From Ectocarpus siliculosus (taxonomy: Eukaryota; Sar; Phaeophyceae; Ectocarpales; Ectocarpaceae), in the NCBI GenBank assembly GCA_000310025.1, contig FN649746.1, positions 1,368,696 to 1,392,565 on the forward strand: a DNA stretch of 23,870 nucleotides, given 5' to 3'. A model generated the notes under the pieces. The model searched no databases. It had not been told where the DNA came from and saw only the letters and a program-made list of their open reading frames with translations. The number at the start of each line of letters is the position of its first letter. Position 1 is the first letter of the stretch. A program made the translations under genes and the position numbers. Below, piece by piece: positions 1 to 15,400 of the stretch.

Positions 1-11
1 AATGTTCAAAG

Positions 12-56
12 GATTAAGGCATGCAGGATTATGATTCCCCCCCCCCCCCCCCCCCC
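12..56 (+). repeat. Retroelement tail-like end followed by a C20 run
   Basis: The block TAAGGCATGCA at about 15-25 matches the conserved end of the LINE tail found again at 991-1001 and 10432-10442. It is followed after about 11 bases by an uninterrupted run of 20 C (37-56). I read this as the 3' end of a preceding element copy, with its C-run, lying directly upstream of the LINE fragment that starts at about 57. Only the last few bases of the putative upstream copy are inside the window, so this rests on a short match. Confidence 0.35.
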
Positions 57-9400: not shown

Positions 9401-12400
9401 TATCAGCTGCCCCGTCGCCGCCCTATTTGGGGGCCCCCACTTTTTTTTTTTTTTCCGGAAACGACACCCCACACGACGACTAAACCGCCGCAGACGATTC
9501 CTCCGCCCAAGGTCGAAAGGACAACGGTGGCGAGGGCGACCGTGACAAGCACCGGTGGAAGGGCGGCGGCGACGGCGGGAAGCCCTGGTCGCAGAGCTTC
9601 GTGCTTCGCAGCCGGCCGTTTGAAGCGTACTACCAGGTGACCGCTCACTTTTTTTTTTTTTCCACTGCAGAGAAAGAAGGCTTGAAACTCATGCTGTAAA
9701 GCCTTGGACGTAGGTTCTTCGATTGGGGTAATATCTCGAACGGTTGGTAATCTTTTGTGATTGTGTGTGTATTTTCTCTGGAAACGGTGCTCTGTTGTTG
9801 TTGCTGGTGCCGTTGTTGTTGTTGCAGTGTTGTGGTCGCATAGCTCTCGTTCGTGCCCGTAGTTGGTGCTGATCTTGCTGGAGATCTTGGCGCTGCCGTC
9901 AATCCAAACGGTGCTCGATGTGCTTGTGGCTGCATTTGTCGCCGATTAGGTCTCGCGAGACATTCGAAAATCCTGTCTCACCTCTCTCCCCTGCCCTCTG
10001 CCCGAAATTTTCGTGTGTTTGTTTCGCCGCGCGTATGCTCTGCGTGCGTGAACACGCCGCATCGCTCACAGGCCATGGGGATAATGCCCAAAGAGGAGTG
10101 GCCGGTGTTCATGAACACGCTCAAGGAGCCGCTGCCTGCTTGCTTCCGTATTCACTCAGACTGCAGCTTCAAAGACCAGTAAGTGCGCTTGACCGTGATT
10201 GGCTGACGCAGTTGCCATGATCGAGCGATTTTTCACGGAACCTTGATATACGCCTCCCCCCCATCCGCCTCGGAACCTGGCTGAAAACGCGGGATGTGAC
10301 ATCGATAGGATGGGTAGGACAGGGAGAACGTGTTTGAGCCACCTTCGGCAAAGTAGGAAGGAACGATTGGCTATCGGTGATCGGTCCTGTGGGAAAATGC
10401 TGGAGGATGCGCGCTCAATGGTCTACCAGCTAAGGCATGCTAAACATGGGTACGCCCCCATCCGCCTCTGCGTTGAGAGATGGAAAACCCGGGTGGCGTT
10501 CGTTTTCGACAAGCATGACGTTAGGTCCAACCGCGAAACAAACAACCTGCGTGTTTCAGTAGGTGCGGCCAAGTGAATAAACACGAAAACGGCTTGTGTT
10601 TCGGTTTATGTTTACGACAGGAGGCGTTTTCGATACGCATGGCGTTAGGTCCGACCGCGCAACAAACAACCTGCGGTATTTCACTAGGGGCAGCCAAGTG
10701 AACAAACACTTAAACGGCGTATGTGTGTGTTTCGTCTTGTGTTGACGACAGTGGACAAACAGCAGCGTCTTTGTTGTTGTGTACGGCAGGGTTAAGAAGC
10801 AGCTGTTAGAGCTGTTGGAGGCCCCGATGGTGATCGAGGGCAAGGAGGTCAAGGCGGTGCGAGAGCTACCCTGGTACGCCGGGGGGTTGGCCTATCGGCT
10901 AGGCTGCGACCGCCGCTTCATCAGGAAGCAGCCCCATCTGGTCAGTCAGTGTGCTGCTTTTGGGGGTCGCTGTCCCCCCTTCTTGCCATTGTGTTGCGCT
11001 ATTTGTGCTTGCACTGTGTGTAGACCTATAAGCACACCAATCCTTTACAGGAGTCGTCGAGTTTTCATCGCTGCTGGCAGATTCGTTTCTAGAAGTCTCG
11101 GTGTCGACAATAGAAAATATTTTGTGCGTGTTTCGTTTTTGCTGGGTATTTTTTATTTTTCAGTTTGGGGACGCAACATATTCAATATCCTCTTATCACA
11201 TGAATATATACTTTGTATGTATACTTCTATGGGTGTGTTAAATTAGGGTTAGGGTTTATTTGTTTGGTTTGTAGGTCTGGGGAGTATTTATTTTTCAGGT
11301 TTGGGGAGTACACATTCGGATATCATCGTTCCGTCGCACGAGGTGTAGATTACCATGGCGATATGGCCCTCCTTGGTGCCTCCCGCGTCCACGCAGTTAG
11401 GGATGACCATGAGAGGGAGGTGTTCGGACTCGGTCCGAAGAAGTGCGGACGAGACCCCATCGATGCGAAAAAAATAATCCAGCATAGGCCCTAGGGGAAA
11501 GTAGATGAAAAAGTTGCAGCGCAGACCCACGAAACACCTTTTTGCAGCATATGCCATTGGGGAAAGTTATGTTTTTGCGGCGGCGTAGACCCTATCCACA
11601 CGAAAAAAAAAATTGCAGCATTGACCGTAGGGGAAACTTATGTTTGCGGCAGCGTACGCCCTATGTACATAATATCGACACGAAGGAAAAAGTAGCACCA
11701 TAAGGCCCAGATGGAATGAATTTTTCCAGCGTAGGCCGTATGGGAGACATATGTATGCAGCAGGGTAGACGCTATGGCGACGAAAAAAAAAATCCAGCAT
11801 AGGCCCTACGGGAAAGTCATGTTTGCGGCAGCCTACATGGTTAAGAAATGGAACGCCGACACTCAATCTCCGTTGAGTATGAAAGCACAAAAAAAATGAA
11901 AAAAATAAATAAACAGAAACTCACGTGAGCTTTCAGGCCGCGCTTCCGGCCCCGTTTCTTGAGGGTCTTCGCGACTTGTCGGGCGTCGTCATCGTCCACG
12001 CACGAGACGATCCGGGGCTTCTCGTCGTCGAGGTCCCCGATGGCGTCCCTCCGGAAGATGCGACCCTCTGCCTTGATGTCGGAAAGGATGTCGTATCCTT
12101 TGGTGACGGCGACCAGTCCTGACGTCTTATAATAAGATAGACGTTGGGGCGGAGAGGGACAGATGTAAATATGAATGAGTGGTACGAGAATCGATGAGCG
12201 CATGACGTGGAAGCGGGGCAGTTGGGCGGGTGTGGCGGGGGCGTAATGGTGGGGAGGGAGGTAACCCACAGGCCCGCCTTCACCCGCACCTCTAGTCGCG
12301 ACACCCACATGCATGCTCATGACAATCTGAGGGCGACACGAGCTACACGACCTGGGTGATTTGTGTACTCGACGAAGTAGCGCGGATGCCGTTGTGCGGG

Positions 12401-15400
12401 GACGGATTGGTGAAAGGCCCGAGTACACAAAAGCGTATGCGCGTTCACACGAAAGGCCAACCCACCTTTTGGTCAAGGCCCGAGTACACAAAAGCGTACG
12501 CGCGTTCACACGAAAGGTCAACCCACCCATTGGTTAAGGCCCGCGTACACAAAAGCGTACGCGCGTTCGCACGAAAGGCCGACCCGCCAAGTGTGTTGTT
12601 GAGTACGTTGATGGAGATGCCGAACGATGACATCCGGCGCAAGCGTGGCGATGGGGGTACGCGATGAAGCGCAGGCGATGCAGGACAGAGTCGGAAGGAG
12701 GTAGTAGGCGACTTGTCGAAGAGGACGATCGTGCGTCGTGAAGAACGAAGACAATCGTCGTGTCTTGAACGGAGAGAGGCAAAGCAGCAGTGTGTGATTT
12801 TGGGGAGGGCTGCTGTAAGAGTGAAGTGGGGTGGGGACGCCAGGGCGGCGAAGTGAGCCCTTCCGCCGGCAGTGCTGTTCCATGATTTCGATAAAGTCAC
12901 AGTACCCGCCCCACCACGTCCAAAGTGTGCCCGCCCGAGCCCGGCAGATTACGCACTGCAGGTTCGTCGGACATGTCCTATTGCCCTGTTGTGCTCCCTG
13001 TTGCAATGGATCTCAACTTTTGGGGTCGGAAACGAGACTGTCAACGGGACTGTCGTAGTACCCCTTGACTAGGAAGTCGTTCGACGGTTAACGGAAAAAT
13101 ACTGCAGGACGCAAATGATTCCTTCCAATTTACAAGTTCTGCCGCTCGGAATATTTCGTTCCGGGGATTGTGTGAGTGTGCATGTGTGCATTGTCCCGGG
13201 CACGGCGGGCCACAGCAGTTAAACATTAAAAATGGAGAACTTCTGCCGCTCAGAAATTATTCGTTTCCAAAAACAGTTGGAACTGCGGGGCGTGTGCGTG
13301 CATTGTCCCGCGCACCAAGGACCCTACATGTCACTAGTTCAATTTTCACAAGGTATGCCGACCGGAAATTATTCCTTCGAAAATTCATTGCTAATGTATC
13401 TTTGACTCTTTTCTTAGATAGAGATGGATTCGTTGGGTCATGTACGAAATAAAAAAGAAAGGTGGAACTCTGGGGCGTGTGTGTGCGTTGTCCGTTCGAC
13501 AATTCATTCATTACTGATCTATGTTTGACTCTTTTCTTTGATAGAGAGAGATGGATTCGTTGGGCCATATGAACAATTTTGTACGATACTGTACCTATAC
13601 AGTGATTTTGTGATTAGCACCTGCTGGCATCACTGACTGCTGGCATCACTGACTGCTGGCATCACTGATACAAAAATTTCAGTGTATAGGCTTAAAATGA
13701 CTCCACATAAGCCCAGTACCCAGCCGGTTTCCCTCCATTCACCGCAAAGACTTCACCACATCCCTTTCGATTGTGATACTATCTCGAATGGGTAGTCTTT
13801 CTGTGTTTGTATTTATGTTTCCTAAAACAATAAACAAACTTGGAACTTCTGGGGCGTGTGTCTGCATTGTACCGTGCTCCGTACGAACGTAACGGGACCG
13901 TTTTCTTAGTTAGACAGAGAGATGGATCCGTTGGGTCATATGAACAGAATAAAAATAAATTTGAAACTCTGGGGCGTGGCGCTTTGCCACACGTAGCAGG
14001 TTCTACGAACCGCCCATCAATGCACCGCACGAACCTAACGGGACTGTGTAGAGACTGTGTAGAATTTAATTAGTCTATACAAACTGAAGTGAATTTGCAG
14101 TTTCCGACTTTGGGCAGACGATAATATAGCGATAGTAGTTATGCATGAGGTTTCACTGTGCACTTTTTTACCGCTCCCCGAAACCGTACATCCTACATCC
14201 TTGCCGGGCCCCTTTGTTTGAACCGACCACGTGTAATCACTACGAGGCCGACATCCGCGGGCCGGCACAAAGAATGCTACGCTACGTTCGGCACGTACAC
14301 ACGCATGCGTACGTATCCCCCGACACGTTCGGGAAGTCAGCAGGCAAACCGGTTGCTGTCAAATCAGTCAAGCGTTGCTGGCTTGCTGCAGAGCTCGATG
14401 AAAATTTCGTTCCTTGTCCACCGTCGTTGAAAGAATTAAAATTCCATCCCCAAAATCGTAGATCCTGCAGAACTTGCTCTCGGATGTTACCAGCAAATTG
14501 CCAAGTTTTATTTTTTTGTCGCCCCGCACAACAGTGGTATAGATCCTGCTCCCGAGATTGTTCTACCGCTGCCCAGATTGGTACATCCTTTCGAGGATTC
14601 TTGGACGGTACCAGCGTATCTGCGAGTCGAAGAAGAAGCGGTGTGTGTTTGCCGGTGCAGCGGCGACTTTTCGTGCCATGCTTGTGCCAGCAGCTTTACC
14701 AAAACGTGGGTTGGTGTTGTTTGCACGCAATGCGTCACTTCCTGTCGTCTATCGGCGCGATCGATCCGATGTCGTCAGGCGGAATTCCACAAATGGCTGA
14801 CGGGCCTAATGGAGAGCGGCAACATCACACGACAGGAGGCCGTGAGCATGCTGCCCCCGCTCTTTCTCGACGTTCAACCGAAGCACTTGGTGAGAGGAAA
14901 ACTAACATGTAAATCAGCGTTGATCTTCCGGCGCCTGTGGGTGTACTCATGTAAACCCTTGCCGTAGTCGTTAAGACCATTAGCCTCGCATCCTTACGAT
15001 GCCGGGACGAGCGAAATATGCCGTGAGAGGGGGTTGGGGGGGGGCGACTCTCATGTGTTGCTGCCTTAGTTGTTAACCACTCGTCCTCGAGAGGACGGAG
15101 TATTATTCCCACAGGACCGATCACCGATGTCCAATGGTTCGGGGGGGGGGGGTACTCATACTCATAGTCGTGCATGCCTTATTATAGTCGTTTGGCCATT
15201 GACCTCGCATCCCTACGAAGCCGGGACGGAGCACGCCGCGTTCTCACCGGACCAGGCTATCACATCACCAAGCGTGAAGCGCCGTGAGGTATTCGGCGAG
15301 TCGCATGAAGTTTGCGCTGCATACTGCTAAGGGTGTTTGACATCTTGTGCTTACTTCCATTCGAGCGGATGACAGCTGCGTGTGACTTAGTTTATTTTCT

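What the first reader, a model, noticed from the sequence alone, without database searches (positions are those of the whole stretch)
1..15240. Retroelement family whose copies abut homopolymer-C runs at their junctions
On the element-sense strand, copies with the same end (TAAGGCATGC, then about 10-20 bases, then GTAC or GTACG) run straight into C: at 1017 (C13), 10455 (C5), 15152 (C12, minus strand) and 15044 (C9, minus strand). A similar end precedes the C20 at 37. In four cases a new truncated copy begins right after a C-run (57, 15140, 15035; 19657 with some extra bases). This gives head-to-tail strings of tails joined by C-tracts. Two models fit: a LINE lineage that inserts into poly-C (analogous to lineages known to target simple repeats), or one that carries a poly-C tail and reinserts at it. 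Homopolymer-C specificity would be unusual and would help explain the many C/G runs here.
Basis: partly seen in the sequence, partly recalled or inferred. Interest (0 to 1): 0.8.

Follow-up and report, generated by a model that had tools for sequence, protein, structure and literature searches.

The report
Jumping genes that home to poly-C
A family of copy-and-paste DNA parasites in this eukaryotic (probably brown-algal) genome, together with a short hitchhiker, lands mostly in runs of the letter C, and a landing usually leaves such a run on both sides of the new copy, ready for the next one.

Summary
The tail 888-1016 belongs to an APE-type LINE ("A") in a 189-Mb eukaryotic genome. Of the 40 best copies, found with a query that stops before the C-run, 37 have C>=5 within 20 nt of the end. 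In an unselected sample 18 of 20 do (background 4.4%; no G-runs).

The C-run was in the target first: 37 of 42 readable 5' flanks carry C>=5, and 12 of 42 copies have target-site duplications (TSDs) that start in the run and reach other letters (mismatched pairs 65 of 1722). The window copy 10272-10454 has CCCCCATCCGCCTC on both sides. The RNA may end in Cs too: 3' Cs exceed 5' Cs in 11 of 16 TSD-supported copies, but in 8 of 13 (p 0.05) without copies from C8-picked loci.

Microsatellite-targeting LINEs are known; a homopolymer-C-specific APE LINE with a SINE-like partner was not in the paper lists I searched. New variant of a known kind.

The parts
1..36 (+). Tail-like remnant (...GGATTAAGGCATGCAGGATTATGATT) in front of the C20
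   Evidence: sequence
37..56 (+). C20: 5' flank, the presumed target run of the first A copy
58..1016 (+). LINE A, 5'-truncated copy; 95% identical to the last 955 nt of the longest copy held (L038)
888..1016 (+). 3' tail of LINE A used as the genome probe; 40 places listed, 2244 first-look candidates
1017..1029 (+). C13 directly 3' of the tail
10256..10262 (+). C7: pre-existing target run, 5' side of the second A copy
10258..10271 (+). 5' copy of the TSD CCCCCATCCGCCTC
   Evidence: two occurrences in the window, this and 10455
10272..10454 (+). LINE A, short old copy (79% identity to the first copy over 176 columns); homology is detected from 10282
10455..10468 (+). 3' copy of the TSD CCCCCATCCGCCTC
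14960..15009 (-). Family B remnant; its end carries only C3 (counter-example)
15036..15044 (-). C9 (G9 on +) at the 3' end of the A fragment
15045..15140 (-). LINE A, 5'-truncated fragment that follows the C12 at the end of B
15141..15152 (-). C12 (G12 on +): 3' run of B and 5' flank of the A fragment
15153..15752 (-). Family B (~600 bp, SINE-like); its end resembles the A tail; no ORF of 120 aa or more is listed here
15621..15752 (-). Two 66-bp tandem units that form the 5' part of B
15753..15761 (-). C9 (G9 on +) at the 5' side of B
19200..19647 (-). LINE A fragment (element positions -1027 to -576), broken at its 3' side
19658..19671 (-). C14 (G14 on +) at the 5' side of that fragment

Best explanation
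A is an APE-endonuclease non-LTR retrotransposon (LINE), and B is a partner without an evident coding frame that borrows A's machinery through a shared 3' end. Both insert by target-primed reverse transcription into poly-C tracts that already exist, with the element's sense strand running into the C strand. The endonuclease nicks the G strand at or just inside the start of the run, the G-rich 3' end primes cDNA synthesis from the RNA, and the second nick some 11-17 nt downstream gives a TSD that starts with Cs. The RNA may itself end in Cs, most simply because transcription runs into the C-run behind the source copy, and these would pair with the G-strand primer. An insertion therefore usually leaves a C-run on both sides, which gives the head-to-tail strings. 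Shown here: the C-runs, their orientation, the 5' runs and TSDs, the shared A/B end, the EN and RT domains. Inferred: the strand and place of nicking, primer pairing, the C-ended RNA and its origin, and the use of A's enzyme by B. The confidence given is for insertion into existing poly-C; for the C-ended RNA alone I would say 0.5.
For: 3' side: 37 of the 40 best copies; 18 of 20 unselected copies against 4.4% background; B 17 of 19, or 10 of 12 without the seven copies in C8-picked loci (recount from its list); 281 of 485 forward motifs with C8 within 5-30 nt, control 0; G>=5 in 0 of 20, 0 of 39 and 0 of 19. 5' side: C>=5 in 37 of 42 readable 5' flanks (43 rows, one reads N), and in 22 of the 26 found without any C in the query; background 5.6% of 41-nt stretches. 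TSDs: shared words of 8 or more with at least 2 non-C letters, starting within 10 nt of the 3' junction, in 12 of 42 true pairs against 65 of 1722 mismatched pairs; the 12 words are 11-17 nt, up to 6 of these letters may belong to the element; e.g. L021 CCCCGTGCGATGACT, L024 CCCCCCCCCTGTATT, window 10258/10455. C-ended RNA: 3' Cs exceed 5' Cs in 11 of 16 TSD-supported copies, fewer in 4, equal in 1, Wilcoxon p 0.009; Cs that the target lacks stand between tail and TSD in L004, L021 and L029. Machinery: Exo_endo_phos E 6e-13, RVT_1 E 1e-31; EN motifs present.
Against: Five of 42 readable 5' flanks lack C>=5: L018 and the A copy in L063 have no run, L004, L019 and L036 only C3-C4. Unselected tails L075 and L080 lack C>=5; so do L006, L021 and L023 among the best 39 (C-rich, shorter runs) and 2 of 19 B copies (one has C12 just beyond 20 nt). 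30 of 42 pairs have no TSD by the test used; where the shared part is all C it cannot be told from chance. The 3'-excess of Cs falls to 8 longer, 4 shorter, 1 equal (p 0.05) without the three copies from C8-picked loci, and slippage after insertion could give it. No orthologous empty site was available. Folding of four tails gives no signal (z -0.6 to 0.2). Run lengths may be wrong in the assembly: several runs end in or near N gaps.
Confidence: 0.82

Rival explanations
1. Tail-only model: the RNA carries a poly-C tail (templated or added), the copies insert anywhere, and the C-run is simply the tail, like the poly-A of L1.
For: 3' Cs exceed 5' Cs in 11 of 16; L018 and the A copy in L063 have long 3' runs without a 5' run (L063 was picked for its 3' run); extra Cs before the TSD in L004, L021, L029.
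Against: 37 of 42 readable 5' flanks carry C>=5, which a 3' tail cannot produce; TSDs contain the run itself, as at window 10258/10455.
Confidence: 0.08
2. Target-only model: insertion into poly-C with no Cs in the RNA; longer 3' runs are later slippage. (It shares the targeting part of the best explanation, so the odds are not exclusive.)
For: TSDs that start inside the run with no added Cs: L009 (11 against 10), L028 (11 against 10), L006 (6 against 4; weak TSD), window 10258 (7 against 5); the 3' excess is only marginal without C8-picked loci.
Against: Extra Cs set apart by a non-C letter (L021 CCCT, L029 CCCCCCCA) or absent from the target (L004) are hard to get by slippage.
Confidence: 0.25
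3. No target preference: the genome is full of C-runs and copies meet them by chance or by assembly error.
For: 56,634 C8+ runs genome-wide, 7.5 or 4 times the number expected from first- or second-order models.
Against: C5 in 4.4% of 32-nt stretches against 18 of 20 tails; no G-runs at 78 tails (20, 39 and 19).
Confidence: 0.01
4. Selection after insertion: insertion is broad, but only copies in poly-C survive.
For: Not excluded: only copies fixed in one assembly were seen.
Against: Near-identical copies (e.g. L008 and L033, 100% over 729 nt) show the same association, and in 34 of 39 the Cs start exactly at the junction, which survival alone would not give.
Confidence: 0.04

Closest known systems
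RTE-X LINEs and RTEX-N1_Ec32 of Ectocarpus (PMC12477816; abstract, sections 5 and 15 read, other passages searched)
   Same: Abundant LINEs with a ~600-bp non-autonomous partner that shares their 3' end, as A and B do here; probably the same or related families.
   Different: The parts read say nothing of poly-C targets, TSDs or tails for these families. Its supplementary annotation notes were not opened (no look-ups allowed). Letter identity was not tested; no sequence from that paper was at hand.
Microsatellite-targeting LINEs: Togen (TG)n and some HERO families (PMC4640811, passages seen); others in Kojima and Fujiwara 2004 (title seen in its reference list only)
   Same: LINEs that use simple repeats as landing sites.
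   Different: Those named in the passages are NeSL-related or HERO, clades the paper treats as carrying a restriction-like endonuclease; A carries an APE-like endonuclease, and its target is a one-letter run.
L1 with its poly-A tail and TTTT/AA site (recalled)
   Same: APE endonuclease; homopolymer pairing between RNA end and primer; TSDs that begin with the homopolymer.
   Different: L1 tolerates varied sites and moves other poly-A RNAs; here C takes the place of A, and a long run is in the target beforehand.
LINE/SINE pairs with a shared 3' end ('stringent' type; PMC3747384, passages seen)
   Same: Partner with the LINE's 3' end; that review also notes LINEs ending in short repeats.
   Different: No conserved 3' hairpin could be shown here; no pol III head was identified in B.
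Poly-G/poly-C tracts of Caenorhabditis (PMC2211496, abstract start and passages seen)
   Same: A genome rich in long G/C tracts.
   Different: A word search of that text found no mention of transposons or retroelements.

Membership tests
APE-type non-LTR retrotransposon (LINE) | Reverse transcriptase domain | tested here: met
   RVT_1 E 1.2e-31 in L038; L1 ORF2p among the best PDB sequence matches, E about 5e-26
APE-type non-LTR retrotransposon (LINE) | APE-like endonuclease upstream of the RT | tested here: met
   Exo_endo_phos E 6.3e-13, 49.4 bits against a cut-off of 24.5, in the other reading frame of L038; motifs found, their meaning recalled
APE-type non-LTR retrotransposon (LINE) | 5' truncation with a constant 3' end, and TSDs | tested here: met
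   26 A copies of 171-2863 nt with one 3' end; TSDs
RTE-X clade | RT phylogeny within RTE-X | not tested
   No reference RTs of the clade were at hand; the name rests on the likeness of the A/B pair to that in PMC12477816
Target-specific LINE | Most copies at one kind of site | tested here: met
   18 of 20 unselected tails, 37 of 42 readable 5' flanks
Target-specific LINE | The site exists before insertion | tested here: inconclusive
   TSD and 5' flank evidence, but no orthologous empty site was available
SINE (family B) | RNA polymerase III-derived head | tested here: inconclusive
   No Rfam match at gathering thresholds in the window; no promoter search was made
SINE (family B) | 3' end shared with a partner LINE | tested here: met
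   37 nt at 84% identity by BLAST, about 40-45 nt in the alignment

The most novel reading that the evidence does not exclude
A LINE and its SINE-like partner specific for homopolymer C that renew their own niche: transcripts end in Cs taken from the run behind the source copy, these pair with the G strand of a new run, and each insertion leaves two C-runs where there was one, so landing sites increase with use.
Probability: 0.45. Interest if true: 0.75.

Novelty: new variant of a known kind. Interest (0 to 1): 0.62.

Why it matters
LINE target choice is understood for few elements. A pair that reads a one-letter tract gives a simple system in which endonuclease preference and RNA-primer pairing can be separated. 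It would also explain many insertions in this genome, their head-to-tail strings, and a part of its poly-C tracts, which interrupt assemblies. If the targets are renewed by use, it is a rare case of a transposon that builds its own safe site.

Tried and rejected
RNA structure of the shared tail: four tails folded, z -0.6 to 0.2, no support. Rfam: no match at gathering thresholds in the window. A purine preference before the run was suspected while reading the flanks and dropped by eye, since T also occurs there and in the listing; no test was run. That A/B insertions make most C-runs is not supported by the held sample (13 of 76 C8+ runs, a lower bound). The 66-bp repeats were first taken for independent empty sites (note); they are the 5' part of B. 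A Pfam scan of host exons failed because the frame was wrong and was not repeated.

Literature: searches. Judged by titles and abstract starts, none of the listed papers reports a LINE specific for homopolymer C. Only 58 (10 of 10) and 59 (2 of 2) listed all their hits; the others were capped (25 of 72, 20 of 337, 20 of 52, 20 of 41, 15 of 974, 15 of 334), and only open-licence PMC papers are held.

Rows and choices. The 5' table has 43 rows: 26 A copies found with the C-free query, 8 A copies in loci picked by a pattern that ends in C8, two A copies of the window and 7 B copies. L038 was left out because its 5' end is not fixed; L062 reads N; L054 and L056 are in two pieces or internally deleted but kept. 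Full-length B copies were not in it. Shifted duplicates (L043-L051, L064-L070) and second fetches of one place (L058, L078, L079, L087) were not counted again. Of 21 distinct B copies, two cut by locus ends (L004, L006) were left out; 7 of the 19 lie in C8-picked loci. A first TSD count without limit on the position in the 3' flank gave 13 of 42 against 28 of 504; one of these (L039) lies about 28 nt downstream and is not a junction, and B in L003 was lost by the stricter rule. The pairs for 5' against 3' Cs were read by eye. They are not identical with the TSD table: L006 and the B copies of L003, L041 and L059 are among the 16 but not among the 12; the 15 lacked the window copy. Background was taken from sequence that itself holds A and B copies, so it is on the high side; copies and pairs are not fully independent, so p values are rough.
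Full report
Where it is. The window is C21:1368696-1392565 of a 189.5-Mb assembly with 492 contigs. A brown alga such as Ectocarpus is my inference from the genome size and from the description of LINEs with a ~600-bp partner in PMC12477816; it was not tested.

The observation. All stated C-runs exist. The query 888-1016 stops before the C-run, so its matches are not chosen for Cs. 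I fetched the 39 other listed copies: 36 of 39 have C>=5 in the 20 nt after GTACG, and 34 start with CCCC; the three others (L006, L021, L023) are C-rich with shorter runs; none has a G-, A- or T-run of 5 there. To avoid choosing by identity I took the first 20 of the 1009 places of CTAAGGCATGC in genome order (reversed-pattern control 38): 18 have C>=5 in nt 9-40 after the motif, L075 has no run and L080 has C3. C5 is found in 4.4% of 32-nt stretches of held sequence. Genome-wide, 281 of 485 forward motifs have C8 within 5-30 nt; the reverse figure counts several ends per place and is not used.

Two families. The end at 15153 belongs to a second repeat, B: about 600 bp, with one or more 66-bp units at its 5' part. 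It shares about 40-45 terminal nt with A. Of 19 B copies with a readable end, which lie near A copies, 17 have C>=5 within 20 nt. Seven of the 19 are in loci that had been picked by a C8 pattern at the neighbouring A copy; without them it is 10 of 12.

The run was there first. For 43 A and B copies the 5' end could be placed. Of 42 with a readable flank, 37 have C>=5 in 41 nt (35 of flank plus 6 of element); among the 26 found with the C-free query it is 22. The background is 5.6%. Matching 5' to 3' flanks gives words of 8 or more with at least two non-C letters, starting within 10 nt of the 3' junction, in 12 of 42, against 65 of 1722 mismatched pairs. These TSDs begin in the run and go on into other sequence. 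The window has its own example: an old copy, 10272-10454, between two copies of CCCCCATCCGCCTC, which occurs nowhere else on the + strand of the window. In L009 the shared word CCCCCCCCCCTCGG runs into the first letters of a B copy, so there A entered a run that stood in front of B.

Cs may be added too. If the 5' flank keeps the whole target run, the 3' run should not be longer. In 16 copies with a TSD, some weak, it is longer in 11, shorter in 4 and equal in 1 (Wilcoxon p 0.009); without three copies from C8-picked loci it is 8, 4 and 1 (p 0.05) (pairs read by eye; one search gave 11, 3 and 1 before the window copy was added). L004, L021 and L029 show Cs between tail and TSD that the target lacks. 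Slippage after insertion remains possible for the pure runs. L018 and the A copy in L063 have a 3' run but no 5' run.

The machinery. L038 has an open frame with an APE-like endonuclease (Exo_endo_phos) and, in another frame, one with RVT_1. In L033, L037 and L038 the last frame ends 7 nt before the C-run, so the 3' UTR is only GAGTACG. The 26 mapped copies are 5'-truncated. L038 lies next to an N gap, so no full length is claimed.

The supply of targets. The genome has 56,634 C8+ runs, against 7,562 (first-order) or 14,128 (second-order) expected from the composition of the held sample. In that sample 13 of 76 C8+ runs have a recognisable tail within 60 nt upstream (control positions 65 of 7001); this is a lower bound, because at least two evident tails were missed by the motif, and the sample lies around A copies and is not random. 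So these elements seem to use an existing niche and add to it.

Known or new. The main text of PMC12477816 (abstract, sections 5 and 15 read, other passages searched) names RTE-X families and a ~600-bp partner; the parts seen give no poly-C target; its supplements were not opened. PMC4640811 (passages) documents (TG)n and other microsatellite targets. PMC3747384 (passages) documents LINE/SINE pairs with shared ends. PMC2211496 (passages) treats G/C tracts of Caenorhabditis without transposons. Searches list no report of a LINE specific for homopolymer C, but six of the eight lists were capped. I rate this a new variant of a known kind.

Noticed in passing
window 6883-8169: Large palindromic element: inverted arms of 320 nt (99%) and 198 nt (95%), probably a fold-back or DNA transposon.
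   Followed up: no
window 18278-19205: Second palindromic element with arms of 193, 117 and 106 nt (91-96%); the A fragment 19200-19647 breaks off at its edge.
   Followed up: no
window 12414-12596: Three tandem copies of a 61-bp unit.
   Followed up: no
window 2101-4796: Exon-like stretches that read like a beta-carbonic anhydrase (CSDSRLS, HYECGG; motif recalled, not searched).
   Followed up: no
window 16501-16780: Exon-like stretch reading [16 protein letters not shown], like an RNA cytosine methyltransferase (recalled; the family scan failed).
   Followed up: partly
genome-wide: 56,634 runs of C8 or more, 4 to 7.5 times the modelled number; several runs at A copies end in or near assembly gaps (L005, L013, L016, L020, L033, L076).
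   Followed up: partly
L025 around 1001 (minus strand), L080, L029 5' flank: Small duplications of the last letters of the tail (GAGTAC repeats; TTTCTAAGAGTACGCCCC), which suggest template slippage at the start of cDNA synthesis.
   Followed up: no
L039, minus strand near 2544 and 2989: Nearly the same ~45-nt stretch ending in C18 occurs twice, 445 nt apart, with an N gap nearby; duplication or assembly error.
   Followed up: no
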